64,000 nt of DNA from Bacteroidota bacterium (GTDB lineage: Bacteria; Bacteroidota; Bacteroidia; B-17B0; Aurantibacillaceae), in NCBI GenBank assembly GCA_030692515.1, contig JAUXZS010000020.1, positions 310,001 to 374,000 on the forward strand, in the 5' to 3' direction. Within the stretch, counting starts at the first letter, position 1, and each line of letters begins with the position of its first letter. The position numbers were made by a program, and so were the translations under genes. Under the pieces are notes generated by a model. It was not told the DNA's origin. It searched no databases and saw nothing but the letters and a program-made list of their open reading frames with translations. Shown here in pieces: positions 380 through 52,269 of the stretch.

Positions 380-1672
380 TTAAAGACTCCAATAGGTTAA
401 ACCCTTTATTTTGTCCTTGTACATTCCTTTTATATCAACTAAAACACCTTTATTTGAGAGAATAGATTTAAAAAATTTCTCGTCTAACGGTTTGTATTCT
501 TTATGATTTACGGCAACAATAACACCATCATAACCTTTACCTAATTTATTTAAACCAAAACCATATTCGTGTTTTAATTCATCGCTGTCAGCATTTGGAT
601 CAACAATTTCAACTTTAACACCAAAGGATTTTAGCTCTTTTACAATATCGGCAACTTTTGAATTACGAATATCGCTTACATCTTCTTTAAAGGTTGCGCC
701 CATTACCAAAACTTTTGATTTTGATAAGTTTTTTCCAGCGGCAACAATTCTTTTAACGCAAGTTTTAGCAACATAAAAACCCATGCTATCATTTACGTAA
801 CGCCCGCTATTAATAACACGCGCGTGATAACCCATTTCTTCTGCTTTATAGGTTAAGTAATAAGGGTCAACACCAATACAATGTCCACCAACTAAACCAG
901 GAGAAAATTTTAAGAAATTCCATTTTGTTCCGGCAGCCTCCAAAACGTCATAAGTATTAATTCCTATTCTAGAAAAAATAATTGATAACTCATTCATCAA
1001 TGCAATATTTACGTCGCGTTGCGTGTTTTCAATAATTTTTGCAGCTTCGGCAACTTTTATGCTTGATGCACGGTGCGTTCCAGGCTCAACAATTATTTCG
1101 TAAGTTTTAGCAATATTCTCTAAACTTTCTTTATCACAACCCGATACAATTTTTAAAATTTTAGTAATGGTATGTTCTTTATCTCCTGGATTAATACGCT
1201 CGGGCGAATAACCCACTTTAAAATCTTTTACAAATTTTAAACCAGAATATTGCTCTAAAACAGGAATACAATCCTCCTCGGTACAACCAGGATAAACAGT
1301 AGATTCATATACTACATAATCACCTTTTTTAAGCACTTTACCAACCGTTGTTGATGCACCAATTAAAGGTTTTAAGTCAGGTAAATTATGTTCGTCTATT
1401 GGTGTAGGAACAGCGATGATAAAAAAGTTAGCCTTTTTTAAATCTTCTAATTTGTGAGTAAAGGAAATATCAGAACCTGCAAAATCTTTTTTAGTTAATT
1501 CCTGACTTGGGTCTATTCCCTTTTTCATCATATTAACGCGTTTTTCGTTAATATCAAAACCTATTACTTTTACTTTTTTTGCAAATGCAAGGGCAATTGG
1601 TAAACCTACATACCCTAAGCCAATAACGGCAACTGTAGCTTCCTTCTTTAAAATCTTATTGTAAATACTCAT
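380..1672 (-). CDS. UDP-N-acetylglucosamine/galactosamine 6-dehydrogenase (TviB/WbpO-like nucleotide-sugar dehydrogenase)
   Basis: The 430-residue protein has the UDP-glucose/GDP-mannose dehydrogenase fold. An N-terminal Rossmann motif GLGYVGLP lies at about residues 18-25, there is a central helical dimerisation domain, and the catalytic cysteine is C265 in the GGHCIGVDPYY motif. The C-terminal UDP-binding domain contains MGATFKEDVSDIRNSK. The family oxidises C6 of a UDP-N-acetylhexosamine with two NAD+ to a uronic acid. The Vi-antigen type is favoured over UDP-glucose dehydrogenase because of the N-terminal sequence and because the two genes before it in the operon act on the resulting UDP-GlcNAcA. 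The exact substrate cannot be proven from sequence. Confidence 0.9.
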   Translation of the reverse strand: MSIYNKILKKEATVAVIGLGYVGLPIALAFAKKVKVIGFDINEKRVNMMKKGIDPSQELTKKDFAGSDISFTHKLEDLKKANFFIIAVPTPIDEHNLPDLKPLIGASTTVGKVLKKGDYVVYESTVYPGCTEEDCIPVLEQYSGLKFVKDFKVGYSPERINPGDKEHTITKILKIVSGCDKESLENIAKTYEIIVEPGTHRASSIKVAEAAKIIENTQRDVNIALMNELSIIFSRIGINTYDVLEAAGTKWNFLKFSPGLVGGHCIGVDPYYLTYKAEEMGYHARVINSGRYVNDSMGFYVAKTCVKRIVAAGKNLSKSKVLVMGATFKEDVSDIRNSKVADIVKELKSFGVKVEIVDPNADSDELKHEYGFGLNKLGKGYDGVIVAVNHKEYKPLDEKFFKSILSNKGVLVDIKGMYKDKIKGLTYWSL

Positions 1673-1690
1673 ATATTAAATTCTAATTTT

Positions 1691-2737
1691 CTAAACTGTA
1701 ACTTCTTTAACTTCTTTTATAACGTTTGCTGGCCTTAAGGCATATATACGTTCAATTATATCTACAACCTTCAATCCTTCTAAAGCATTTGTGGATATTT
1801 TATTTTTTCCTTTTAAAGTATCTACAACATTTTCGATAACATTATGATGATTGTTAGCGGAACCTTTGTAAGCACCGTAATCATTAGCAGGATTAGTTTC
1901 ATTTAAAATTGGCATAGTATAATCTTTTATATTACACACATCAATTTGATCCATATACTGACCGCCAACTTTAACGCTTCCTTTACTTCCAACAATGGTT
2001 AACGACGATTCTAAATTTTTATCCCAAACAGCTGTAGAGTAATTCACACAGCCCATACCACCATTTACAAAATCAAAACTTACAAATCCACTATCTTCAA
2101 ATGCTGTGGTTTTTTGATGATTAAAATCTGCAAATTTCGCTTGAATATTTGTGATATCACCAAATACCCAATACATAATATCTATCCAATGACTGAATTG
2201 AGTGAATAATGTTCCGCCATCTAAATCCTGAGTTCCTTTCCAATTATCTGGTTTATAATAACGCTCATCACGATTCCAATAGCAGTTTAATTGAACCATA
2301 TAAATATCGCCAATAATTTTTTTCTCAACCACTTCTTTTAACCAAACACTAGGAGGAGAATATCGATTTTGCATAACACAAAAAACGGTTTTATGGTGAT
2401 GCAAGGCAGTAAAAATTACTTTCTCACAATCGGCTTTGGTTAATGCCATTGGTTTTTCTACTACCACATGTTTATCGGCATCTAGCGCTTTTAATGCATG
2501 TATAGCGTGTAATCCATTTGGAGTACAAACATTAACCACCTCAACCTCTGGATGAGCGGCAATTAATTCATCAATAGAATTATAAAATTTTTCCTGTAGA
2601 TTATCTAAACCCAATTTTTCTTTTGGAAGTGAGTCACAAACTGCTATTAACTCGCAATCAGGATTTCTACGAATCATCTCTGCATGGCGTTTACCAATAT
2701 GCCCTTGCCCAATTACTGCAAACTTTATTTTATTCAT
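1691..2737 (-). CDS. Gfo/Idh/MocA-family oxidoreductase, probably UDP-GlcNAcA 3-dehydrogenase (WlbA/WbpB-like)
   Basis: The 348-residue protein begins with a Rossmann glycine motif (GQGHIG, residues 10-15) and has the EKPMAL motif typical of Gfo/Idh/MocA enzymes, followed by the alpha/beta substrate domain. Its start codon abuts the stop of the acetyltransferase gene, and the nucleotide-sugar dehydrogenase follows 18 nt downstream. In the Bordetella/Pseudomonas pathway a protein of this family oxidises C3 of UDP-GlcNAcA so that an aminotransferase can add nitrogen. That role is inferred from the neighbours; the family itself is clear. Confidence 0.85.
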   Translation of the reverse strand: MNKIKFAVIGQGHIGKRHAEMIRRNPDCELIAVCDSLPKEKLGLDNLQEKFYNSIDELIAAHPEVEVVNVCTPNGLHAIHALKALDADKHVVVEKPMALTKADCEKVIFTALHHHKTVFCVMQNRYSPPSVWLKEVVEKKIIGDIYMVQLNCYWNRDERYYKPDNWKGTQDLDGGTLFTQFSHWIDIMYWVFGDITNIQAKFADFNHQKTTAFEDSGFVSFDFVNGGMGCVNYSTAVWDKNLESSLTIVGSKGSVKVGGQYMDQIDVCNIKDYTMPILNETNPANDYGAYKGSANNHHNVIENVVDTLKGKNKISTNALEGLKVVDIIERIYALRPANVIKEVKEVTV

Positions 2738-3322
2738 TTAACTTATACGTTTTACAGTGTTATTTTCTAATTTATATTTTTGGCTGCTCTCTTTGCAAAT
2801 TGCAAAACCTTCCTTATCAAATTCTAATCTATGTCCATACTCGCTCATCCAGCCTATTTGACGAGATGGATTTCCAACAACCAAAGCATAATCTGGTATG
2901 TGTTTAGTAACAACAGTGCCTGCGCCGATAAAGGCAAATTTTCCTATATCATGACCACAAACAATTGTTGCATTTGCCCCTATTGAAGCCCCTTTGCCAA
3001 CATGTGTTTTAGCATACTCTGATTTACGATTAATTGCACTCCGTGGATTAATTACGTTGGTAAATACCATACTAGGCCCTAAAAATACGTCGTCATCACA
3101 AGTTACACCTGTGTAAATAGAAATATTATTTTGAGCTTTAACGTTACTACCAAGCACTACTCCGGGTGATACAACAACATTTTGACCAAGATTACAATTT
3201 TTGCCCAATTTGCAATTAGGCATAATATGCGAAAAGTGCCAAATTTTAGTACCCTCACCAATCTCACAACCTTCGTCGATAACCGCAGTTGGATGTGCAA
3301 AATAATTTTTAGTTTCCATCAT
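2738..3322 (-). CDS. UDP-2-acetamido-3-amino-glucuronate N-acetyltransferase (WlbB/WbpD-like)
   Basis: The 194-residue left-handed beta-helix acyltransferase is full of hexapeptide repeats (for example IGEGTKIWHFSHI and GKNCNLGQNVVVSPGVVLG). Segments such as TGVTCDDDVFLGPSMVF and TNVINPRSA are characteristic of WlbB/WbpD. This family acetylates the C3 amino group of UDP-GlcNAc3NA to give the diacetamido uronic acid used in O-antigen and surface glycans. It is the first gene of the minus-strand operon. Two ATG codons are adjacent at the start (3322 and 3319). The aminotransferase that should act before it is not in the window. Confidence 0.9.
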   Translation of the reverse strand: MMETKNYFAHPTAVIDEGCEIGEGTKIWHFSHIMPNCKLGKNCNLGQNVVVSPGVVLGSNVKAQNNISIYTGVTCDDDVFLGPSMVFTNVINPRSAINRKSEYAKTHVGKGASIGANATIVCGHDIGKFAFIGAGTVVTKHIPDYALVVGNPSRQIGWMSEYGHRLEFDKEGFAICKESSQKYKLENNTVKRIS

Positions 3323-3444: not shown

Positions 3445-6111
3445 ATGAAATTTAACTACAAAAATTACCTCCCACATGGCTTAGCCATTGTTGTTTTCGC
3501 CATTATTACCTTAATTTATTTTAAACCATTATTTAGTGGAAAAGAATTAAAACAAGATGATATCTCGCGTCACAAAGGTATGAGTAAGGAAATTGTAGAT
3601 TATCGAAATGCTCATAATAATGCCGAGCCTTTATGGACAAACTCTATGTTCGGCGGAATGCCAGCGTACCAAATATCCACAAAATACCCAGGTAATTGGA
3701 TTGGAAAATTAGATAATGTCTTTAAACTTTACATACCTCTTCCTGCTGGCTATTTATTTTTATATTGTTTAGGCTTTTTTATTTTACTGTTGTGTTTAGA
3801 TGTTAACCCTTGGTTGGCGCTAATTGGAGGCTTAGCCTATGGCTTAAGCTCTTACTTTTTAATTATATTAGAAGCAGGACATAACTCAAAAGCCAATGCT
3901 TTAGGCTATTTACCGGCATTATTAGGTGGCGTTATTTTACTTTTTAGAGGTAAGCCTTGGCTTGGTTTATCAATAACGGCCCTATTTACAGCCATGGAAT
4001 TAAATGCTAATCACGTTCAAATATCTTATTATGGTTACATTTTAATTGGCTTTGTAATTGCTGGCTATTTTTTCTCTCATTTAAAACAAAAACAATTGCC
4101 TGTGTTTTTTAAAGGCTTGGCTTTATTTTTAATTGCGACGTTAATTGGAGTATTGCCCAATTATGGCAGTTTAGCAACTACAAACGAATATGGTAAATAT
4201 AGCACAAGAGGAAAATCGGAGTTGACTATAAATAAAAATATGGTTGAGGATGATAAAACTCCTCTAAGCCTTGATAACGGCGGTAATGCGAAAATTGCAA
4301 AAGTTAAGGGGGATGAATCGTTAGCTAAAAAACATGAGAAAAATAGCACTACTGGTTTAGATGAAGATTACGCAACACAATGGAGTTATGGTATTGGCGA
4401 AACCTTTACTTTTTTAATTCCAGATTTTAAAGGTGGTGCAAGCGCAAGTGTTAGAAGTGCCGATGGTAACGCATTAAAAAAAGTAAATGCTGATTTTAAA
4501 GAACAAGTAGCAAGTAGCAGCGCTTATTTTGGTGACCAACCTTTTACAAGTGGGCCTGTTTATATTGGCGCTATTATTATTCTTCTGGCGATGTTGGGCA
4601 TGTTTGTTGTAAAGAACACTATTAAATGGCCAATATTTTTAGCAACTGCCTTAACAATAGCTTTAGGCTGGGGTAGCAACTTTATGGGTCTTACTGATTT
4701 TTTCATGCACAATGTACCCGGCTATAATAAATTTAGGGCTGTAAGTATGATTATGGTAATTGCAGAACTAACCTTGCCATTACTCGCCATCTTAGCCTTA
4801 AATGAAATTATTAAAATAAAAAATTGGGATGATAAAATTAAATTAGGCTTAATTAAAAAAGAAGTATCCCTTAAAAAATTAGTGATTATTTCCGTTTCTG
4901 TAGTTGGTGGGTTTTGTGCGGTAAGTTACTTAATGCCAGATGCTGTTAACACATTTCATGCATACGGCGAAGAACAATCAATCATACAACAAGCAGTTAG
5001 AGCAGGTAATCCGGAAAACCAAGTAAGACCCTATGTAGCTCAATTAATGCCACAATTAGAAATTGCACGTAAAGCCATTTTTAAAGCGGATGCTTTGCGC
5101 TCACTAATCTTTATAATTTTAGGTTTTGGCGCATTGTTTTTATACTTCACTAATAAATTAAAAAAAGAATTATTTTTTGCAGCTATAGGTATTTTTATTG
5201 CAATAGATCTTTGGACTGTAGCCGCAAGGTATTTAAATGATAAATCATTTGTAACCAAAGAACAAAATCAACAAAGTTTAGTTGCCAAAACTGCTGCGGA
5301 TGAGGAAATATTAAAAGACAAAGATATAGACTACCGTGTTTTAAATTTAACAGTAAGTACATTTAATGACGCGGCAACTTCTTATTACCACAAATCAATT
5401 GGTGGATACCATGGAGCTAAATTGAAAAAGTATGCAGAGCTAATTGAATTTCATATCGACAAAGAAATAAATTCTTTTTACCAAGATGCAGGAAAAGCTT
5501 TTTCAAGCGATAGTGCTATGCGTGTTTTATTTAGCAGTTTAAATGTCATTAATATGTTAAACACTAAATATTTTATTATTCCTGGTGGTGGAGAAAACCG
5601 CACCGAAATTCCATTAAAAAATCCTGAAGCAAATGGAAATGCTTGGTTTGTAAATACAATTTATACAGTTCCAAATGCTGATGATGAAATTGTTGGATTA
5701 GGAAAAATTAATACTAAAACACAAGCCATTATGCAAACTACTTTCAAAACAGAGCTTGGATTAATAAACACTTATAGTGGTGAAGGCACAATTAAATTAT
5801 TATCCTATCAGCCAAATGAACTAGTTTATGAAAGCGAAACAAAAGCAGATGAGTTTGCTGTATTTTCGGAAATTTATTACCCAAAAGGTTGGAATGCATA
5901 TATTGATGGTCAATTAAAACCTTATGCGGGTGTTAATTATGTATTAAGAGGGATGCAAATTCCTGCCGGTAAACATAAAATAGAATTTAAGTTTGAACCT
6001 AAAACCTATACAACCGGAAATACAATTGCCATGATAGGTTCAATACTAATGTTAATTACAGTTGGTGTTGGCTTTTATTTAAACAAAAAGAACAATGTTA
6101 TTGTTAGTTAA
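3445..6111 (+). CDS. YfhO-family polytopic membrane protein (GT-C-like)
   Basis: The 888-residue integral membrane protein has an N-terminal transmembrane helix, then many hydrophobic segments across about residues 95-270 and 370-480, another cluster around 545-590, and a C-terminal anchor (AMIGSILMLITVGVGFYL). Loop motifs such as NSMFGGMPAYQI and AGHNSKANALGYLPALLGG are typical of the YfhO family. Members are regarded as GT-C-type lipid-linked sugar transferases that decorate cell-wall or surface polymers; substrate and reaction are unknown here. The gene is monocistronic, transcribed away from the sugar operon, and followed by thioredoxin after 102 nt. Confidence 0.85.
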   Translation: MKFNYKNYLPHGLAIVVFAIITLIYFKPLFSGKELKQDDISRHKGMSKEIVDYRNAHNNAEPLWTNSMFGGMPAYQISTKYPGNWIGKLDNVFKLYIPLPAGYLFLYCLGFFILLLCLDVNPWLALIGGLAYGLSSYFLIILEAGHNSKANALGYLPALLGGVILLFRGKPWLGLSITALFTAMELNANHVQISYYGYILIGFVIAGYFFSHLKQKQLPVFFKGLALFLIATLIGVLPNYGSLATTNEYGKYSTRGKSELTINKNMVEDDKTPLSLDNGGNAKIAKVKGDESLAKKHEKNSTTGLDEDYATQWSYGIGETFTFLIPDFKGGASASVRSADGNALKKVNADFKEQVASSSAYFGDQPFTSGPVYIGAIIILLAMLGMFVVKNTIKWPIFLATALTIALGWGSNFMGLTDFFMHNVPGYNKFRAVSMIMVIAELTLPLLAILALNEIIKIKNWDDKIKLGLIKKEVSLKKLVIISVSVVGGFCAVSYLMPDAVNTFHAYGEEQSIIQQAVRAGNPENQVRPYVAQLMPQLEIARKAIFKADALRSLIFIILGFGALFLYFTNKLKKELFFAAIGIFIAIDLWTVAARYLNDKSFVTKEQNQQSLVAKTAADEEILKDKDIDYRVLNLTVSTFNDAATSYYHKSIGGYHGAKLKKYAELIEFHIDKEINSFYQDAGKAFSSDSAMRVLFSSLNVINMLNTKYFIIPGGGENRTEIPLKNPEANGNAWFVNTIYTVPNADDEIVGLGKINTKTQAIMQTTFKTELGLINTYSGEGTIKLLSYQPNELVYESETKADEFAVFSEIYYPKGWNAYIDGQLKPYAGVNYVLRGMQIPAGKHKIEFKFEPKTYTTGNTIAMIGSILMLITVGVGFYLNKKNNVIVS

Positions 6112-43203: not shown

Positions 43204-43737
43204 ATGACTGAGAGAAAAGTAGTTTTATATATTTCGATGAGCTTAGATGGTTATATTGCAACTAAAGATAATGAGCTTGACTTTTTATCGCTTGTAGTAA
43301 AAGAAGGGGAAGATTATGGCTATTTAGATTTTGTAAAAACAATAGATACAGTGATTATTGGCAGAAAAACTTATGATAAGGTAATTGCCATGGGTTATGA
43401 ATATCCTCACAGAGACAAAGATGTTTATATTATAACAAGAACAGAAAAACCAGCAATTGGTACTTTTAAATTTTATACCGGCAATCTTAAAAACCTTGTT
43501 ACAAAATTAAAACAAGAGGAAGGCAAAAATATTTATTGTGATGGGGGCGCAGAAATTGCCAACGAACTCATAAAAAATAATTTAATAGATGAATATATTA
43601 TTTCGGTAATTCCGATTTTACTTGGCGATGGAATTAAACTTTTTAAAGATGGTAGACCCGAACAGAAACTAGAACTTATTTCAACCAAACAATATGATAC
43701 GGGCTTGGTTCAGCTTCGTTACGAACGTGCAGTTTAG
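43204..43737 (+). CDS. RibD C-terminal / dihydrofolate-reductase-like protein
   Basis: The 177-residue protein has the DHFR-like fold of the RibD C-terminal family: VVLYISMSLDGYIATKDNELDFL, TVIIGRKTYDKV, a lysine/glutamate-rich loop, IYCDGGAEIANELIKNNLIDEYIISVIPILLGDGI. It should bind NADPH, but the substrate is unknown; such stand-alone copies are common and probably not in riboflavin synthesis. The fic promoter begins 10 nt after its stop. Confidence 0.88.
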   Translation: MTERKVVLYISMSLDGYIATKDNELDFLSLVVKEGEDYGYLDFVKTIDTVIIGRKTYDKVIAMGYEYPHRDKDVYIITRTEKPAIGTFKFYTGNLKNLVTKLKQEEGKNIYCDGGAEIANELIKNNLIDEYIISVIPILLGDGIKLFKDGRPEQKLELISTKQYDTGLVQLRYERAV

Positions 43738-43746
43738 TAGGATAAT

Positions 43747-43777
43747 TTTGAACTTTACAAAAAAAAGGCTATTTTTG
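43747..43777 (+). promoter_or_regulatory. Promoter of the fic gene (TTTG-N19-TATTTTTG)
   Basis: A perfect Bacteroidota promoter: -33 TTTG at 43747-43750, 19-nt spacer, -7 TATTTTTG at 43770-43777. The predicted start near 43781-43782 falls inside the first operator palindrome. Confidence 0.75.
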
Positions 43778-43799
43778 ATAGTATCAAATGATAGTATCA
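43775..43799 (+). promoter_or_regulatory. Twin-palindrome operator before fic
   Basis: TGATAGTATCA occurs twice, at 43776-43786 and 43789-43799, separated by AA. Each unit is an odd palindrome (TGATA-G-TATCA), with centres 13 bp apart. The pair overlaps the predicted transcription start and abuts the ATG at 43800. The same pair recurs at 48313-48336 after a degraded promoter. Confidence 0.7.
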
Positions 43800-44753
43800 A
43801 TGAAACCTCCTTACGACATTAGCCCAAAAATTTTAAAATTAATAAGCTCAATTTCCGAAAAAATTGGAGAGGTAAATGCTAACTATCTCAGCAAACAATC
43901 GCCCCAACTGCGAAAACAAAATAGAATTAAAACCATTCATTCTTCTTTACAAATAGAGGGCAATACATTAACAGAAGAACAAATAACCGCGTTAATCGAA
44001 AACAAAAGAGTAATTGGTCCGCAGAAAGATGTTGTAGAGGTTTTAAACGCTATTAAAGTATATGACAAGCTAAACAACTACGAATTTTTATCTGAAAAAA
44101 GTTTTCTAACTGCACATCAAAATTTAATGACCGGATTAATTAACAAGTCTGGCGAGTACAGAAAACAAGGCGTTGGAATAGTTAAAGGAACTAAATTAGA
44201 ACATGTTGCTCCGCCCTATAAAAATGTTCCTTATTTAATGAAAGACTTATTTAAATATCTTAAAGATACAAATGAACTTACTTTAATAAAAAGTTGTGTT
44301 TTTCATTACGAAATGGAATTTATTCATCCCTTTATTGATGGTAATGGAAGAATGGGCAGATTATGGCAAACATTAATTTTAATGTCGGAGTATCCAATTT
44401 TTGAGTTCTTACCATTTGAAACATTAATAAGTAAAACACAAAAAGATTATTATAAATCACTTGCTGTCAGCGATAAACTAGGAAAATCAACTATTTTTAT
44501 TGAGTACATGCTTAACGTTATTAACCAATCCTTAGAAAGCCTATTGTCCTACAATAATCGGATTTTAAAAGATACAGATAGATTAGAGCATTTCATTTCT
44601 TTACAAATAAAATCATTTACGCGCAAAGATTATATGAATGTGTTTAAGGACATATCGTCGGCAACAGCAAGTAGAGATTTAAAAAAAGGAATTGTCTTAA
44701 AACTGTTTAAAAGTGCTGGTACTATGAATAAGACCGAGTACCTTTTAAAATAA
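43800..44753 (+). CDS. Fic-family protein with inhibitory helix and C-terminal winged helix
   Basis: The 317-residue protein has an N-terminal domain with SSLQIEGNTL, matching the class II inhibitory motif (S/T)xxxE(G/N) with E53. The Fic core carries the complete active-site motif HPFIDGNGRMGR (H176). A C-terminal winged-helix-like region (TRKDYMNVFKDISSATASRDL, about residues 270-300) follows. It should transfer AMP, or another nucleotide part, to target proteins when inhibition is relieved. The ATG at 43800 is preferred over one at 43788 because the duplicated operator at 48284-48337 ends at exactly this point. The C-terminal domain may bind the operator (inference). Confidence 0.9.
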   Translation: MKPPYDISPKILKLISSISEKIGEVNANYLSKQSPQLRKQNRIKTIHSSLQIEGNTLTEEQITALIENKRVIGPQKDVVEVLNAIKVYDKLNNYEFLSEKSFLTAHQNLMTGLINKSGEYRKQGVGIVKGTKLEHVAPPYKNVPYLMKDLFKYLKDTNELTLIKSCVFHYEMEFIHPFIDGNGRMGRLWQTLILMSEYPIFEFLPFETLISKTQKDYYKSLAVSDKLGKSTIFIEYMLNVINQSLESLLSYNNRILKDTDRLEHFISLQIKSFTRKDYMNVFKDISSATASRDLKKGIVLKLFKSAGTMNKTEYLLK

Positions 44754-44828
44754 TTACTTTTTCTAAGACAAAGAATTCTTAAAACACAAAAATTTATTAT
44801 AACATCTTAATTAGATTAAAAAAATAAA

Positions 44829-45385
44829 ATGGAAGTCGTTTTTTTTGAAACACCGGCAGAATTTAGAAAATGGTTAAAAAAAACCATAAATCAAAAACAG
44901 AACTTATTGTGGGTTATTATAAAGTGGCTAGCGGCAAAGCATCCATGACTTGGTCGCAATCGGTTGATCAAGCACTTTGTTTTGGCTGGATAGATGGCGT
45001 AAGAAAATCAATAGATGAAGAAAGTTATTGCATTCGTTTTACACCAAGAAGGCCTACAAGTATTTGGAGCGCAATAAATATTAATAAAATTAAAGAACTT
45101 ACCGAAGCAGGTCTTATGACTCCAGAAGGACAAAAAGCTTTTGCATTAAAGAACGAAAATAAATCGAAACTATATGCTTACGAAAAAGAACCAATAAGTC
45201 TTGCACCGAACTATGAAAAACAATTTAAAAAAAATAAACAAGCTTGGGATTTTTTTATGAAACAAGCGCCCTCTTATAAAAAAGTAATACTAAATTGGAT
45301 AATGGCTGCAAAACAAGAAAAAACGAGGCAATCACGTCTTGAAAAAACCATAAAAACAAGCGAGCAACAAAAAAGAATTTTATAA
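44829..45385 (+). pseudogene. YdeI/OmdA-family (OmpD-associated) protein, frameshifted at an A8 run
   Basis: ATG at 44829 begins MEVVFFETPAEFRKWLKK, the normal family start. The frame then leaves at a run of eight A (44876-44883). The rest of the family sequence (NHKSKTELIVGYYKVASGK, SQSVDQALCFGWIDGVRKS, YCIRFTPRRPTSIWSAININK) continues in another frame to 45385. One extra A would restore a protein of about 185 residues. Without it, frame one stops near 44948. This is either a true mutation, a homopolymer sequencing error, or a slippage site. The family is linked to stress and heavy-metal responses; its biochemical function is unknown. Confidence 0.8.
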
Positions 45386-45394
45386 TAAATAATT

Positions 45395-45934
45395 ATGCTA
45401 ACCGAAAATACATTATCAGTAGTAAACTCATTTCATACCGACCTAAAAGTTGCAATAGAATTAGTTTATGATAAATGTGGTTTTGAATTTAATAAGCCCA
45501 AACTAAATCTAGAAAGTATAGAATATGGCGCTTGCTCCTTTGAACTTAACAAAAACAAAATTATTCATAGAGTCTCTAAAATCACACCAACAAAAGCCGG
45601 GCAGTTTGTAACAATTTGGAAAAGAAAGCAAGACGGAATAACCGAGCCCTATTCTATTTTAGACGATTTTGATTTTATTATTATAACTGCTAGAAGCGGC
45701 GAAAATTTCGGACAGTTTATTTTTCCAAAAGCGGTTTTAGCAGAAAAAGGAATTATTACCAAAAAAGATAAAGAAGGAAAGCGCGGAATACGTGTATATC
45801 CACCTTGGGACAAAGCAACAAATAACCAAGCACTAAAAACTCAAACTTGGCAAACGAACTATTTTTTAATAATTAAAAACAATAACTTAACGGATCTTGA
45901 ATTGGCACAAAAATTATTTACAACAACTAGTTAA
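45395..45934 (+). CDS. MepB-family protein
   Basis: The 179-residue protein matches MepB: LESIEYGACSFELNKNKIIHRVSKITPTKAGQFVTIWKRK, ILDDFDFIIITARSGENFGQFIFPKAVL, KRGIRVYPPWDKATNNQALKTQ. MepB was first named next to the staphylococcal mepRA operon, but its function is unknown. There is no signal peptide. It starts 9 nt after the frameshifted YdeI/OmdA gene, so they may share a transcript. Confidence 0.88.
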   Translation: MLTENTLSVVNSFHTDLKVAIELVYDKCGFEFNKPKLNLESIEYGACSFELNKNKIIHRVSKITPTKAGQFVTIWKRKQDGITEPYSILDDFDFIIITARSGENFGQFIFPKAVLAEKGIITKKDKEGKRGIRVYPPWDKATNNQALKTQTWQTNYFLIIKNNNLTDLELAQKLFTTTS

Positions 45935-46591: not shown

Positions 46592-47566
46592 ATGAAAAAA
46601 CTCTTCCTTGCAGCCACACTTTTTTTGTTCATGGGAGTTTCATACTCTCAAAAATACCAACCAATTGATTCAACATTAGTTTGGAATACCAGCAACTCGA
46701 TGAGAATTGCTAGTGGGTTTTGTTGTTATGTTAACGAAGATGCAAGCTTTCAATTTAAAGGATTTGTTTTAAATAATGGTAATACATGGTTGAAGTTATT
46801 CGAGTCGGCACTTTATACTCGTGTTGCTTGTTTTCCACAATGTACTGACGGAACTGTGCCGGGTAATTTTACTAACAGTTTTCGTGGTTACTTAATGAAT
46901 GATAGTGTAAATAAAAAAGTTTATTTCACATCCACACTTACTGCAAATTATACACCAACAACAAGTAATATTGTTTATGACTTTGATAATAAAAATATTG
47001 GAGATAGTTTAAACTGGAAACCTATTTTATCACCTTTTTCGATGCCCAATATTCCTAAATTCAAAATACTAACAATAGATTCATTCTCATTCGCTGGAAA
47101 ATATCATAAGCGATATAGCGTGGTAAATAACACTATATTCAGCCCTACAAGAATCATTTATGTAATGGAAGGTATGGGTAGTTCACTTGGCCCATGGAAT
47201 TCAATTTTTACAGATTTCGAATTTAATTCATCACTAACTTGTTTTTCTAAACCTCAAAACGCAGTAAGTGTTACAAGCTACACTAATTTTGTTCCTACCT
47301 CAGCTCCATACTGTGCAACGATAAATGTTGTACCTGAATTTGAAACTGCCATTTTTACTGTTTATCCTAATCCGGTAAAAAATTTAATAAATTTAGAAAA
47401 TATTAATGTCAACTCCATTTCAATATTTGATGTAGTTGGTAAACTTGTAATTGAACAATCAGAAATTCATGGCTCAATCAACGTTGAAAGTTTACTGCCT
47501 GGAACTTATTTTTTAAAAATAAGAACCAATAACAGGATTTATTCTTCAAAATTTATAAAGGAATAA
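46592..47566 (+). CDS. Secreted protein with T9SS type A sorting domain
   Basis: The 324-residue protein has a Sec signal peptide (cleavage near residue 20, after SYSQ), a beta-rich middle with six or more cysteines that I cannot assign, and a C-terminal sorting domain from about residue 252 (TVYPNPVKNLINLENI, SIFDVVGKLVIEQ, LPGTYFLKIRTNN, ending SSKFIKE). It should cross the outer membrane by the type IX system. The function of the 230-residue passenger is unknown. Confidence 0.8.
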   Translation: MKKLFLAATLFLFMGVSYSQKYQPIDSTLVWNTSNSMRIASGFCCYVNEDASFQFKGFVLNNGNTWLKLFESALYTRVACFPQCTDGTVPGNFTNSFRGYLMNDSVNKKVYFTSTLTANYTPTTSNIVYDFDNKNIGDSLNWKPILSPFSMPNIPKFKILTIDSFSFAGKYHKRYSVVNNTIFSPTRIIYVMEGMGSSLGPWNSIFTDFEFNSSLTCFSKPQNAVSVTSYTNFVPTSAPYCATINVVPEFETAIFTVYPNPVKNLINLENINVNSISIFDVVGKLVIEQSEIHGSINVESLLPGTYFLKIRTNNRIYSSKFIKE

Positions 47567-47756
47567 ATTGTAAGTTCTTAATCCATTTCCTTGAAATATC
47601 GTTTTAAAAATTTATTTTGATAATCTTAAAGTATATATAAAATATTTTGCTGATTGGATGAAAAAATAGATTATTTGAAAATCATAAACCCTAATTTTCT
47701 ATTGCAAGAGAAAATGTCAGCTAAGAAACCTAATGGGTTTTAAGCTATAAGAATTC

Positions 47757-48182
47757 TTAATTTATTACTATTTGCTTGTCCGATTTTTTTAAGGCCAAAG
47801 CAATACAACTTGGATTCATGTCACATGTACGAAATCCTTCGGGTGGTGGCATTAAAACCACTACAATTTTACTGTCAGTTTCAAGGATATAATCAACAGT
47901 TAGTTTAAAAGAACCAGAAGTAAGAATTTTAAAAACCACAACAATCATTTCCTTGTCAAAATCAAATCTAAAATCCTTTGGGTACGATCCATAAGTTTGA
48001 TAATAAAAATCAAAATACTCGTGAACATTATTTACAACAAGCGGTGGCTTTTCTTTATATTCATATCTACCTTCCATAACTATTTTATAAGAAATTGTAT
48101 CTGAAATATCAATATCCATTTGCCCTTTAAAGCAATTGGCTAATAAGCATAGGAATAAAACGAATAAGACATTAATTTTCAT
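47757..48182 (-). CDS. Secreted protein, weakly PrcB-like
   Basis: The 141-residue protein has an N-terminal signal peptide (about residues 1-20). The C-terminal half (FDKEMIVVVFKILTSGSFKLT, KIVVVLMPPPEGFRTCDMNPS) resembles the PrcB C-terminal domain in strand pattern and in the polar loop before the last strand. Support is weak, so the family is tentative. It is convergent with the T9SS-type gene; no terminator was identified between them. Confidence 0.6.
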   Translation of the reverse strand: MKINVLFVLFLCLLANCFKGQMDIDISDTISYKIVMEGRYEYKEKPPLVVNNVHEYFDFYYQTYGSYPKDFRFDFDKEMIVVVFKILTSGSFKLTVDYILETDSKIVVVLMPPPEGFRTCDMNPSCIALALKKSDKQIVIN

Positions 48183-48658
48183 TCTAAAATAGTTTATACT
48201 AATTTAATAAATTAAATGCAATAACTAGTAAGGTTTTGAGCACTTAACATAAATTAAGGTAACAAAACCTTAGCAACAATAACTTTGAACTTTACATAAA
48301 AAAGCCAGTTTTTGATAGTATCAAATGATAGTATCAACAAGCCCCAATTTTTTCTACTAAACTATAAGTAGTAATTTCCTAAAAGTAAAAAAAGTATCTA
48401 TGTTGTTATTAATTACTATCGCTTAAGTAGAAAACAACATTTCAAATTTAAAACCATTGAAGTGAAATAAAACAACTATCATTGTGCAATGAAAAATTTG
48501 ATGCTAAACATATTTCGGTATATTTGATAAAGAGTTTTTTTTTAAGTACCAGAGAAAAAATTGAAGCTTTTATCTTAGCGAGAACTTAGCCTTAAGCATT
48601 AACTAAAAAAAATAACTAAAAGTGCGGTGTCAGCACCTAAATCACTGACAAAAATAAA
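48183..48658. other. Intergenic gap holding the orphan fic operator copy
   Basis: The 476-bp gap contains the degraded promoter/operator copy (48284-48337) and no gene. A 12-codon frame (48325-48360) follows the copy and stops at once. Near the YCII start, 48625-48636 forms a small GGTG / CACC hairpin. The remainder is AT-rich without visible features. Confidence 0.6.
48284..48337 (+). repeat. Second copy of the fic promoter/operator, without a fic gene
   Basis: The 54 bases match 43747-43800 at 50 positions in the same orientation. Both TGATAGTATCA palindromes are intact (48313-48323 and 48326-48336). The -33 TTTG is kept at the same spacing, but the -7 box has changed from TATTTTTG to AGTTTTTG. 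Similarity ends just where the fic coding sequence would start. Confidence 0.85.
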
Positions 48659-49000
48659 ATGAAAAAATTTATTGTAATTTATCACACGCCACCAGAAGCA
48701 GTTAAACAAATGGAAAATGTAAGTCAAGAAGATCAAGCAAAGGGAATGGAGGGTTGGATGACTTGGGCAAAAAAATGTGGTGACAATCTTGTTGATATGG
48801 GAGCCCCTCTTATAAACGGAATTCAACTTAGTCCTGATGGAAAAACAAATCCAAGTAATAAAAATGTAAATGGTTATTCTATTTTACTTGCCGAAAATAT
48901 GAATGAAGCAACTGCACTTCTAAAAGGACATCCACACTTAGGATGGAATTCTGAATGCACAATTGAAGTACATGAAACCATGCCTCTTCCTGGTATGTAA
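48659..49000 (+). CDS. YCII-related domain protein
   Basis: The 113-residue cytoplasmic protein has the YCII-like ferredoxin fold: KKFIVIYHTPPEAVKQM, EGWMTWAKKCGDNLVDMGAPLINGIQL, NGYSILLAENMNEATALLKGHPHL, ending EVHETMPLPGM. The family includes small dimeric proteins of unknown reaction, sometimes enzyme-like with a conserved His (here the GHPHLGW loop). It stands alone in its transcript. Confidence 0.85.
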   Translation: MKKFIVIYHTPPEAVKQMENVSQEDQAKGMEGWMTWAKKCGDNLVDMGAPLINGIQLSPDGKTNPSNKNVNGYSILLAENMNEATALLKGHPHLGWNSECTIEVHETMPLPGM

Positions 49001-49139
49001 GATAATACACACACCTTTGTTTTTTACGAATTTTGGATGAGATGATATTTTAATTCTCTCCAAAATTCGTGGGAACTAAAAAAATGTTATTCACGCTAAA
49101 GAGTTATGCTACAGAAATGCGCTCCTCAAAATAATTGAA

Positions 49140-49571
49140 ATGAAAAAAATAACTTACCTCCTACTTTTCTTTCTACTTTCTATTTCGGGCTTTGCACAAA
49201 AACCATGCGACGATAGAAGTGACTCCGTAAAAAAAATTGTTCTTAATAATGCAAAATTGATTAGTGAGCTTATCGCTAACTTTCCGGCCAATGAATACAA
49301 TAAGATGATTGATTATGTTTCGGTTGAAATAAAATGCACTAGTAATGGAAAAGAAATAACTGCAGAAGGACTAAGCGATACTTTAAATTTAGAACAAAAA
49401 AATATTCTAAAAACTGCCGACATAGGTTCGAGAATAAAAATAAAAATTAAGTTCAAATATAAAGACTCTAAAAACGATGACTATGGTAGCTCAAGAAAAA
49501 TTAAAGAAATGAAATATGAAGTAAAAGCCTCTACGCTTGCGCCAAGTGGATTGCCGCCATGTAATTGTTAA
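49140..49571 (+). CDS. Small secreted protein of unknown function
   Basis: The 143-residue protein has a clear Sec signal peptide (LLLFFLLSISGFAQ, cleavage about residue 19). The mature part has cysteines near both ends (C23 and the terminal PPCNC), which may form disulfides, and otherwise shows a mixed helix/strand pattern. No known domain was recognised. It borders the large structured gap on its right. Confidence 0.65.
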   Translation: MKKITYLLLFFLLSISGFAQKPCDDRSDSVKKIVLNNAKLISELIANFPANEYNKMIDYVSVEIKCTSNGKEITAEGLSDTLNLEQKNILKTADIGSRIKIKIKFKYKDSKNDDYGSSRKIKEMKYEVKASTLAPSGLPPCNC

Positions 49572-49754
49572 AGATTTTAAGTAAGATAAATTTACTTAAT
49601 AAATTAAGATATATATTTCCTGCAGAAATATTTACAACACCCTAAATTTTTGGTTTTTTATTGTCACTTTTGGCGCTCAAAAGTAACCAAAAAGCTTTTG
49701 ACCTTTTGGAGGAGATTTTAATTTTGGCGATTTAGAGGCAGCCAAAATAAAACC

Positions 49755-49816
49755 GTTGCCTGTCTAAACGCTTGTCTGTATGCTGAATCAACTAACCGCA
49801 GAGTTTAGACAGCAAC
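49755..49816. repeat. Strong stem-loop within the 49572-50175 gap
   Basis: The left arm 49755-49769 (GTTGCC + TGTCTAAAC) pairs with 49803-49816 (GTTTAGACAGCAAC) with one bulged C; the loop is 33 nt. Confidence 0.75.
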
Positions 49817-50059
49817 TATCTCTGCAAAAGCCCAAAATAACATTGCGTTGAAAAACTGTGCGCTATAACATTTATTTTCTAAATTGACTTTTTTGAGACT
49901 TGACTTCTTAGCATGCAGCTACGTCTTGGAGAGTGCGGCTGCTAACGGCGATTTGGTGCAGGAACTTGCAAAGCAAGTAGCCAGCATGTGTAAAGCAATT
50001 TTTCGTTAGGTGGGTGTTGAATTTAGCAAACAATACGAAAAATTCAGGTTGGCAAATCG

Positions 50060-50136
50060 CCTTGATTTCTTTTGTTACACTTCGCACAAGCCGGCCTAAT
50101 GCAAAACGCATTATCCTCATCAAGGAAGAAAAGTAA
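50060..50136. repeat. CCTTGAT / ATCAAGG hairpin with inner AATGC-GCATT stem, related to 20432-20470
   Basis: CCTTGATTTCTTTTGTTAC begins at 50060 and ATCAAGGAAGAAAAGTAA at 50119. The same outer sequences occur at 20432-20471, where the inner part is only a few bases. Here about 40 extra nt, with a perfect AATGC-AAAAC-GCATT stem (50098-50112), lie between them. Confidence 0.6.
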
Positions 50137-50175
50137 GGCTAAAAACAGAAATTCGTCTTTTTGAGACTCTACTAA

Positions 50176-52269
50176 TTAATACCCCAATAAACTTTCAATT
50201 GCTGCTTCTACTTTATCAGCATTTGGCAACATTGTTTTTTCTAAAATAGAATTTAAAGGAATAGCCGGTAAATTTTCGGCACCAATAACTTTTACAGGCG
50301 CATCTAAAGCTTGAAAACAATTTTCGCTAATACGCGCAGCAATGCTTTGCGCAAAACCATTATGTACTGGCTCTTCGGTTAACACCATTACTTTATTATG
50401 CAAACGTGAACTTTCAAAAATACATTGTTCGTCAATTGGTGCAAGGGTTCTTAAATCAATAATTTCTACTTGTCCCTCAAATTTTTTGGCGGCTGCTTTA
50501 GCCCAATAAACGCCCATACCATAAGTAATAATGCTTAATGATTTTCCGGCTTTTATATTTTCTTCGCTGGCTTCAATTACCTTGCGCGCTTTTCCGAATG
50601 GAATAATATAATCTTCATCGGGCTCAATTGTTTTTGCATCTTCGGTGCCTTTAATTTTACTCCAATACAAACCTTTGTGTTCTAACATCACAACGGGATT
50701 TGGATCGTAGTATGCAGACTTCATTAAACCTTTTAAATCTGCACCGGTACTTGGATAAGCAATTTTTATTCCTTTTATATTTACTAAAACACTTTCTACA
50801 CTACTAGAATGATATGGCCCACCACTTCCGTAAGCACCAATTGGCACACGTAGTATCATGCTTACAGGCCATTTACCGTTTGTTAAATAACAACTTCTGC
50901 TAACCTCAGTAAATAATTGGTTTAAGCCTGGCCAAATATAATCTGCAAACTGTACTTCAACAATTGGCTTTAGGCCAACTGCGCTCATACCAACCGTAGA
51001 ACCTACTATAAAGGCTTCTTGAATGGGTGTATTAAAAACTCTGTGTATACCAAATTGTTGAGAAAGCGTTGCGGCTTCTCTAAATACGCCTCCTAATCTT
51101 GCGCCTACATCTTGTCCGTATAACAAACACTCCGGATGTTTGGTCATTAATTCTCTAATGGCAAATAAAGCGCTATCAACCATAACTGTTGGCTGTTTGC
51201 CGGCAGGAGAACGTTCACCTTTTTCTTCGGTAACCGGTGTTTCGGCAAACTCATGCAAAAATAAATCTTCTGGTCTAGGATCCTCTTCTAATAACGCTTT
51301 TTGATAATCTGCTTCAACTAACTCTTTTGCATTCTCTTCCATCAATTTAATTTCAGAGGCATCAACACCAGCAATAATTAATTGATTTCTTAAACGAGGT
51401 AATGGGTCGCGCTTAGCAGCCTCTTCCAAATCATCACGGTACCATTCTTTACGCACACCACTTGTGTGATGGTTTAGTAATGGCACTTTTGCGTGAATAA
51501 GCATTGGTCTGCGCTCTGTGCGAATAATATCTAAACACTCTTGTATTGTATTATAACTCAAAATAAAATCAGAACCATCAATTGTTCTGGTTTCTAATCC
51601 CTTAAATCCCTTAGCAAACTCAGTAATATCTTGCGCGCGGAATTCTTCAGAATGAGCACTTATATCCCACTCGTTATCCTGCACAAAATATAAAATTGGT
51701 AATTGTTTTAAAACTGCCATTTGAAAAGCTTCAGAAACCTCGCCCTCTGTACAGCTGGCATCACCTAAAGAACAAACAGCAACAGGTTTATCTCCTTTAT
51801 AATCGGGAGCAATATTTGTATTTTCCATGTATTGCATACCCATTGCAATACCGGTTGTTGGTATAGCCTGCATTCCGGTAGCACTTGATTGGTGCGGAAT
51901 TTTTGGCATATTATCTCTTCTTAAACTTGGGTGACAATAATAAGTTCTCCCACCCGAGAAAGGATCGTTACGCTTTGCCAATAATTGCAACATTAACTCA
52001 AAAGGCTGCATACCAATTGCTAACAGAATACTATCATCGCGGTAATACGGACTAACAAAATCTTGGGGTAAAAGTTGTAATCCAAGTGCAAGCTGCACGG
52101 CTTCATGTCCACGACTTGTAGCATGAACATATTTGGCTGTTATTTCTTTATTTGCCTCATATAATTCAGACATACTTTTAGCCGTACACATAAGTGAAAA
52201 AGCTTGTTTAAGAATATCTAAAGGTATTTTAGTTTTCACTGCAGTTGCTTTTAACGTAAAATCGTCCAT
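50176..52269 (-). CDS. Fused E1 (alpha-beta) component of a branched-chain-type 2-oxoacid dehydrogenase
   Basis: The 697-residue protein joins an N-terminal E1-alpha domain to a C-terminal E1-beta domain. The alpha part has the thiamine-diphosphate motif GDASCTEGE (G169) ending in DNEWDIS (N199). The beta part starts near residue 360 (VDSALFAIRELMTKHPECLLYGQDVG) and has the YDPNPVMLEHKG and YGMGVYWA segments. It decarboxylates 2-oxoacids and passes the acyl group to a lipoyl E2, which is not in the window. Fused E1 proteins of this length are usual in Bacteroidota. Branched-chain oxoacids are the likeliest substrates. Confidence 0.9.
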   Translation of the reverse strand: MDDFTLKATAVKTKIPLDILKQAFSLMCTAKSMSELYEANKEITAKYVHATSRGHEAVQLALGLQLLPQDFVSPYYRDDSILLAIGMQPFELMLQLLAKRNDPFSGGRTYYCHPSLRRDNMPKIPHQSSATGMQAIPTTGIAMGMQYMENTNIAPDYKGDKPVAVCSLGDASCTEGEVSEAFQMAVLKQLPILYFVQDNEWDISAHSEEFRAQDITEFAKGFKGLETRTIDGSDFILSYNTIQECLDIIRTERRPMLIHAKVPLLNHHTSGVRKEWYRDDLEEAAKRDPLPRLRNQLIIAGVDASEIKLMEENAKELVEADYQKALLEEDPRPEDLFLHEFAETPVTEEKGERSPAGKQPTVMVDSALFAIRELMTKHPECLLYGQDVGARLGGVFREAATLSQQFGIHRVFNTPIQEAFIVGSTVGMSAVGLKPIVEVQFADYIWPGLNQLFTEVSRSCYLTNGKWPVSMILRVPIGAYGSGGPYHSSSVESVLVNIKGIKIAYPSTGADLKGLMKSAYYDPNPVVMLEHKGLYWSKIKGTEDAKTIEPDEDYIIPFGKARKVIEASEENIKAGKSLSIITYGMGVYWAKAAAKKFEGQVEIIDLRTLAPIDEQCIFESSRLHNKVMVLTEEPVHNGFAQSIAARISENCFQALDAPVKVIGAENLPAIPLNSILEKTMLPNADKVEAAIESLLGY

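What the first reader, a model, noticed from the sequence alone, without database searches (positions are those of the whole stretch)
48284..48337. Orphan second copy of the fic promoter/operator with a degraded -7 box
The copy matches 50 of 54 bases. Both palindromes are perfect while the -7 box has decayed (TA to AG), and similarity stops where fic would begin. Selection may preserve operator binding but not transcription, for example as a decoy or titration site, or it may be the scar of a lost fic gene.
Basis: partly seen in the sequence, partly recalled or inferred. Interest (0 to 1): 0.7.

Follow-up and report, generated by a model that had tools for sequence, protein, structure and literature searches.

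The report
Leftover promoter of a lost gene
A short stretch of bacterial DNA that looks like a spare on/off switch for a Fic gene is most likely the leftover front end of a Fic gene that was lost there, and comparing it with other species suggests that this group of Fic genes carries the same probable self-repression switch.

Summary
The copy is real. Window 48284-48337 matches the resident fic promoter/operator (43747-43800) at 50 of 54 bases; both 11-bp palindromes are perfect and the -7 box changed TA to AG. It is no common repeat: the assembly holds these two sites only. The twin palindrome is the conserved operator of one Fic subfamily: in 86 of 120 stretches fetched by the pattern it lies at a fic start. 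Operators without a fic occur elsewhere. In 395 class genomes 25 of 41 sites lie at a close fic and one near a distant Fic; 15 stand alone, 2 of them in genomes with a fic elsewhere. Several are visible scars: fic truncated behind the operator, or syntenic sites lacking fic. The window copy also keeps an upstream flank identical, in register, to another species' fic promoter (17/17; resident 7/17), so it is unlikely to be a mere copy of the resident promoter. Best reading: a dead promoter left by a lost fic. Selection on the operator is not shown (P = 0.087) and the decoy reading is not supported. Binding by Fic is inferred.

The parts
48266..48282 (+). Upstream flank AACCTTAGCAACAATAA of the orphan promoter; identical in register (17/17) to the fic promoter of L063, 7/17 in the resident fic promoter
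   Evidence: 48266-48287 occurs once in the window with up to 3 mismatches; TTAGCAACAATAACTTTG is the only exact match to its pattern in the genome
48284..48287 (+). -33 element TTTG of the orphan promoter
   Evidence: consensus from passages of PMC6847099
48307..48314 (+). Decayed -7 box AGTTTTTG (consensus TAHHTTTG; resident TATTTTTG)
48313..48323 (+). Operator palindrome 1 of the orphan, TGATAGTATCA
48326..48336 (+). Operator palindrome 2 of the orphan, TGATAGTATCA
48338..48658 (.). Non-coding stretch where fic would be expected; no fic remnant detected
   Evidence: HMM of 79 fic proteins finds nothing at i-E < 5 in 46801-50200; best local alignment to fic reached by 97 of 300 shuffles; no Rfam match up to E 1
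43742..43800 (+). Resident fic promoter/operator: TTTG 43747-43750, TATTTTTG 43770-43777, palindromes 43776-43786 and 43789-43799
43788..44753 (+). fic: Fic/Doc family protein with predicted C-terminal winged helix; the conserved start is Met 43800 (MKPPY), just after the operator
   Evidence: Pfam PF02661 E 7.1e-21; model with H258-267, H275-281, H287-299, E303-306, E313-316, mean pLDDT 89.3; start by comparison
43204..43737 (+). RibD_C-domain gene; its stop codon lies 4 bp before the block shared by the two promoters
48497..48526 (+). Separate -33/-7 promoter match (TTTG-N18-TATATTTG) before the next gene, so the orphan is not needed as its promoter
48659..49000 (+). 113-aa gene downstream of the orphan, no Pfam or NCBIfam match

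Best explanation
The 48266-48337 stretch is the relic of a fic promoter/operator whose gene was lost (or moved). In the living arrangement (resident copy and relatives) a Fic protein with a C-terminal winged helix is predicted to bind two adjacent TGATANTATCA palindromes. The first covers the end of the -7 box and the transcription start; the second covers the few leader bases before the start codon. Binding would block RNA polymerase, so Fic would repress itself. At 48338 the gene is gone and the -7 box has decayed, so the site should be silent. The operator is intact most likely because the loss is recent; the resident Fic could still bind it, but nothing shows that such binding is used. Shown: sequence anatomy, operator-fic linkage, scars in other species, in-register flank homology. 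Inferred: Fic binding, autorepression, and that a fic once stood exactly here. Open: whether that fic was a second copy or the former place of the resident gene.
For: Operator at a fic start in 86 of 120 stretches. TAnnTT directly before the operator in 69 of 96 fic-linked loci. In 395 class genomes: 41 operator sites against 0 for the reversed control; 25 within 400 bp of a close fic start, 1 (G187) about 90 bp from a distant Fic (26%), 15 alone, of which 2 are in genomes with a fic elsewhere. Scars: operator followed by fic start codons but not the whole gene in L048, L052, L076, L094, L103, L114, L139, L177, L186, L201, L215 and L217. Empty sites: L105 keeps both flanks of the L099 fic locus and L155 both flanks of the L144 fic locus, without fic; L065 matches the L060 fic locus over 3.5 kb and stops 4 bp after the operator, with its -7 TA changed to GA. 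Window flank 17/17 with L063 in register, resident 7/17. Winged helix predicted; CccR precedent (PMC9755527, section 10 part 1 read).
Against: No fic codon remnant was found at 48338-48658 (downstream alignment reached by 50 of 200 and 172 of 200 shuffles). No relative with fic at this syntenic site was found, so the window's own empty site is not demonstrated. The promoter core -29..-1 is closest to the resident copy (25/29), as a short local duplication would predict. The flank match rests on one locus, L063 (L117 shows a similar flank shifted by one base); when the region -110..-27 alone was aligned without fixing the register, 3 of 200 shuffles reached the L063 score. In L070 a truncated fic is followed by an OmdA gene as the resident fic is, which speaks for the resident site being the older one.
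Confidence: 0.67

Rival explanations
1. A short duplication copied only about 60-70 bp of a fic promoter to this place; no fic gene was ever there.
For: Core -29..-1 matches the resident best (25/29; of the seven other loci compared the next is L045, 22/29). No fic remnant downstream. Similarity to the resident ends one base after the operator.
Against: The orphan has 17 further upstream bases identical and in register with L063's fic promoter, which the resident lacks (7/17), so the resident in its present form cannot be the template for the whole stretch unless it lost that flank afterwards.
Confidence: 0.2
2. A selected decoy: the orphan keeps Fic-binding sites without a promoter to titrate Fic and tune its autorepression.
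For: Both palindromes perfect while two of the nearly invariant -7 positions (T-12, A-11) are changed (passages of PMC6847099). The genome does encode the cognate Fic.
Against: Perfect palindromes are not significant (P = 0.087; 0.065 on the 59-bp block). Operators standing alone elsewhere mostly lie in genomes without a close fic: 13 of 15. Of 37 genomes searched, two have a fic that the locus end had cut off; of the other 35 none has a close fic at E <= 1e-20 and one (L128's) a distant one at 31%. In 87 family genomes no other has two operator sites.
Confidence: 0.08
3. The orphan is an active, Fic-controlled promoter for an unannotated small RNA or for the 48659 gene.
For: A -7-like TAACTTTG lies at 48280-48287.
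Against: No TTTG 17-21 bases before it, and the main -7 box is broken. The 48659 gene has its own -33/-7 match at 48497-48526. No Rfam match in 48150-48700 and no + strand ORF of 70 aa or more starting between 48338 and 48658.
Confidence: 0.04

Closest known systems
CccR of Yersinia pseudotuberculosis, a class II Fic with C-terminal HTH that represses its own promoter (PMC9755527; section 10 part 1 of 2 and passages read)
   Same: Fic domain plus C-terminal DNA-binding domain; palindromic sites in its own promoter; shared TGATA core in the binding box
   Different: CccR's footprint is AGATAATCAT-N26-ATGATAATCT near -35/-10; here two complete 11-bp palindromes sit side by side over the -7 box, start site and leader. 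CccR is secreted; nothing of that kind was tested here.
Fic protein Dde_2494 of Desulfovibrio (PDB 4RGL), nearest solved structure
   Same: 262 bits over residues 5-257; best Foldseek match, 39% identity
   Different: The sequence match stops before the C-terminal winged helix; nothing in the calls tells its operator
SoFic / Sofic anti-phage Fic proteins (PADLOC model; PMC12249575, abstract read)
   Same: PADLOC SoFic model matches residues 9-283 at 150 bits
   Different: Far below NCBIfam's SoFic cut-off (54 against 550 bits); no defence function tested here
Relic promoters left by gene deletion
   Same: Promoter homology without the gene; shown here in L065, L105, L155 and in part-deleted fic loci
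   Different: The window genome also keeps an intact fic 4.5 kb away; of the other 14 class genomes with an operator standing alone only G430 has a fic elsewhere

Membership tests
Fic-HTH autorepressor (CccR-like) | Fic core with HPFx(D/E)GNGRxxR | tested here: met
   Pfam Fic E 7.1e-21; H176 P177 F178 D180 G181 N182 G183 R184 and R187 invariant in 45 sequences
Fic-HTH autorepressor (CccR-like) | N-terminal inhibitory motif of class II ([ST]xxxE[GN], motif recalled) | tested here: met
   SSLQIEGN in the protein; S49 in 90% or more, E53 and G54 invariant in 45 sequences
Fic-HTH autorepressor (CccR-like) | C-terminal HTH domain | tested here: met
   Model: H258-267, H275-281, H287-299, E303-306, E313-316. 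Prediction only; no separate search with this domain was made
Fic-HTH autorepressor (CccR-like) | Palindromic sites in its own promoter | tested here: met
   86 of 120 stretches fetched by the pattern; without that bias, by recount, 24 of 29 class genomes whose fic match is 45% or more identical. No TGATANTATCA within 300 bp upstream of 4 of 4 proteobacterial fic genes with similar core and another tail (4 of 25 plasmid records were fetched), though L250 has one near-match, TGACACTATCA
Fic-HTH autorepressor (CccR-like) | Protein binds the operator and represses | not testable with these tools
   needs gel shift/footprint and reporter
Fic-HTH autorepressor (CccR-like) | CccR's own site arrangement (10-bp inverted boxes, 26-bp spacer) | tested here: not met
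   two adjacent 11-bp palindromes, 13 bp centre to centre
Bacteroidetes housekeeping promoter (TTTG / TAHHTTTG) | intact -7 box at the orphan | tested here: not met
   AGTTTTTG at 48307-48314; resident has TATTTTTG
Scar of a lost fic | fic-type promoter homology beyond the operator, gene absent | tested here: met
   48266-48337 aligns to L063 at 85% over 73 columns, ends in register; no fic downstream
Scar of a lost fic | remnant codons, or relative with fic at the same site | tested here: inconclusive
   no remnant found; no syntenic relative found
Selected decoy/titration site | operator conserved beyond neutral expectation | tested here: inconclusive
   P = 0.087 and 0.065
Selected decoy/titration site | operators standing alone co-occur with the cognate fic | tested here: not met
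   2 of 15 such sites in 395 genomes; the window genome itself is one of the two

The most novel reading that the evidence does not exclude
Orphan twin operators are kept on purpose: they remain Fic-binding sites after the gene is gone, either titrating a resident Fic (window genome, G430) or answering Fic proteins that arrive from neighbouring cells, as CccR does, so a broken promoter with a perfect operator would be a Fic sensor or sink.
Probability: 0.06. Interest if true: 0.7.

Novelty: new member of a known kind. Interest (0 to 1): 0.4.

Why it matters
The orphan itself is a relic. The comparison it prompted shows that one Fic subfamily carries the same twin-palindrome operator over its start in many Bacteroidota and some other bacteria. 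That predicts self-repression for these proteins, gives an exact DNA target for a simple binding test, and supplies a tag for counting how often fic genes are lost, since operators left alone mark where they stood.

Tried and rejected
Common-repeat reading: rejected, two sites in the assembly. Phage-borne element: no exact match in viral contigs. Downstream fic remnant: HMM and shuffled alignments found none. Conserved gene neighbourhood at the orphan: 11 window proteins against 132 loci (L036-L167) gave one RibD_C hit (L078) and one OmdA hit (L070), neither linking the orphan to a fic site. The 48659 protein in 40 genus genomes: weak matches in 3 besides the own genome. Orphan DNA in 87 family genomes: besides the own genome and G105's fic promoter only pieces of 22-72 bases. 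The flank as a genome-wide element: with up to 3 mismatches the 18-bp pattern has 126 matches against 92 for the reversed control, the orphan alone exact. Small RNA: no Rfam match. Literature (search listings seen): the exact half-site string gave 8 papers, unrelated by title; searches for Fic autoregulation listed CccR and Sofic; a search on orphan operators and decoys listed nothing on Fic. No paper describing this operator appeared in these listings. The class II label of the window protein rests on a recalled motif.

Corrections made on checking: G187, first counted among 16 sites without fic, has a distant Fic (26%) with its start about 90 bp from the operator, so 15 stand alone. The idea that the orphan is the older fic site was withdrawn, because L070 shares the resident order fic-OmdA; the main odds were lowered from 0.70 to 0.67 and the duplication rival raised from 0.17 to 0.20 for that reason.

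The 86 'fic start' stretches include truncated genes such as L070. Of the other 34, L107 and L167 had their fic cut off by the locus end, and L051 was left out of the handles. One search kept 96 and one search kept 93 of 131 loci examined, those with a fic hit and a recognisable operator nearby. The structure alignment used the window and 44 of 74 complete fic genes found. Many genomes are incomplete; G110-G142 carry no completeness value, so 'no fic' can be a gap. Some operators without remnants may be chance, although the reversed control gave 0 in 395 genomes.

Full report
OBSERVATION. The two stretches are as described. Resident: TTTG at 43747, TATTTTTG at 43770-43777, palindromes 43776-43786 and 43789-43799, then the fic start. 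Orphan: TTTG at 48284, AGTTTTTG at 48307-48314, palindromes 48313-48323 and 48326-48336. A whole-assembly search with up to 3 mismatches finds these two sites only.

WHAT THE PALINDROMES ARE. In 87 family genomes the 24-bp pattern (up to 3 mismatches) occurs in 13. Of the 12 loci outside the own genome, 8 have a fic relative right behind the pattern (L037, L038, L039, L041, L042, L043, L045, L047) and 4 do not (L036, L040, L044, L046). The 80 titles listed are mostly Bacteroidota; fic-linked ones outside it include a Bacteriovoracaceae, a Bdellovibrionales, a Gammaproteobacteria and a Rickettsiaceae MAG. In 69 of 96 aligned fic-linked loci TAnnTT directly precedes the operator's TG, that is, the operator overlaps the end of a Bacteroidetes -7 box. 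The consensus TAHHTTTG, with T-12 and A-11 nearly invariant, is from passages of PMC6847099. Placing G at -5 puts the transcription start inside the first palindrome and the second palindrome in the leader (inference).

WHO BINDS IT. The protein is a Fic with a predicted C-terminal winged helix (helices 258-267, 275-281, 287-299, strands 303-306 and 313-316; mean pLDDT 89.3). T289 A290 S291 R292 D293 in the third of these helices are invariant in 45 operator-linked proteins. Four proteobacterial Fic proteins with a similar core (47-51% identity) but a different tail have no TGATANTATCA within 300 bp upstream, although one of them (L250) shows a single near-match, TGACACTATCA. In the class survey, which was not chosen by operator, 24 of 29 genomes with a fic match of 45% or more have the operator beside it (recount). 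So operator and protein type largely go together, which fits Fic reading its own operator. The precedent is CccR, shown by reporter, gel shift and footprint to repress its own promoter through its HTH domain (PMC9755527, section 10 part 1). Binding by the Fic studied here is not shown.

OPERATORS WITHOUT FIC ELSEWHERE. In 395 genomes of the class, the pattern with up to 1 mismatch gives 41 sites in 40 genomes and the reversed control 0. A fic search of the same 395 at E <= 1e-50 finds 37 genomes. Crossing the two: 25 sites lie within 400 bp of a fic start and 16 do not. One of the 16 (G187) proved to lie about 90 bp from a distant Fic of 26% identity. Of the remaining 15, two (G000, the window's genome, and G430) are in genomes with a close fic elsewhere. 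Of 37 genomes searched through their loci, three matched at E <= 1e-20: those of L107 and L167, whose fic the locus end had cut off (confirmed by overlap), and L128's, with a distant Fic of 31%. So operators standing alone are mostly found where no close fic was found.

SCARS. Several sites carry the first codons of fic but not the gene, in part with its tail end: L048, L076, L094, L103, L114, L139 (L048, L094 and L139 score weakly there but align as DNA to intact fic loci); L052, L177, L186, L201; L215 (start codons, then residues 264-317) and L217 (residues 1-74). Weaker candidates are L156 and L218. Three are empty sites. L105 keeps both flanks of the L099 fic locus (2-473 and 747-3005, operator at 654) without the gene. 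L155 keeps both flanks of L144 without the gene. L065 (Sphingobacterium athyrii) follows L060 (S. siyangense) for 3.5 kb and stops 4 bp after the operator, its -7 TA changed to GA. L065 is the closest parallel to the window orphan: a similar breakpoint and the same kind of -7 decay.

THE WINDOW ORPHAN. It has no fic codons that I could detect. Upstream, 48266-48282 is identical to the fic promoter of L063 at the same distance from the operator (17/17), against 7/17 for the resident and at most 10/17 for the others among 93. Without fixing the register the evidence is milder: over -110..-1 none of 200 shuffles reached the L063 score, over -110..-27 alone 3 of 200 did. The core -29..-1 is closest to the resident (25/29; L045 22/29; L063 18/29). 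So orphan and resident share a recent ancestor in the core, while only the orphan shows the L063-type flank. A lost second fic, or a moved fic, explains both. Which site is older is open: the flank would make the orphan the older one, but L070 has a truncated fic followed by an OmdA gene, the same order as at the resident site. A short promoter duplication followed by loss of the resident's flank remains possible.

SELECTION OR DECAY. Perfect palindromes among 4 differences in 54 bases have P = 0.087; on the 59-bp block P = 0.065. The palindromes are also what drew attention to the site. There is no need for selection, and none is shown. The next gene has its own -33/-7 match at 48497-48526.

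VERDICT. Real feature, most likely a relic of a lost fic. The lasting result is the conserved twin-palindrome operator of this Fic subfamily and its use as a marker of fic loss.

Noticed in passing
L099:5327-5350 and 5465-5488: Chryseobacterium polytrichastri has two twin operators 114 bp apart upstream of its fic, the only two-site stretch among the 120 apart from an overlapping repeat in L048.
   Followed up: partly
L048:6493-6529: Pedobacter sp. Hv1 carries three tandem palindromes instead of two, followed by about 16 fic codons and no fic.
   Followed up: partly
G430 C41:125213-125236 and L220 (C12:83500-86500): Second genome with an operator standing alone plus a fic elsewhere; that fic carries an operator just beyond the one-mismatch limit.
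   Followed up: partly
L219 (G187): A Fic of another subfamily (26% identity) has a one-mismatch twin operator about 90 bp before its start.
   Followed up: partly
G316 C24 and C27; G407 C28 and C8: Two genomes with two fic relatives each and no operator within one mismatch.
   Followed up: no
L189 (G467): Operator lies about 190 bp upstream of the fic match, with a partly fic-like start codon stretch in between.
   Followed up: no
window 43204-45934; L070:2224-3146: fic sits among RibD_C, OmdA and MepB-like genes, all on the + strand; L070 has a truncated fic followed by OmdA in the same order.
   Followed up: partly
window 47757-48182: Minus-strand gene left of the orphan has a weak match to dentilisin complex subunit PrcB (26 bits, cut-off 125).
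   Followed up: no
L087, L105, L155, L161, L036: Operators without fic remnants often lie close to what look like terminators (by eye).
   Followed up: no
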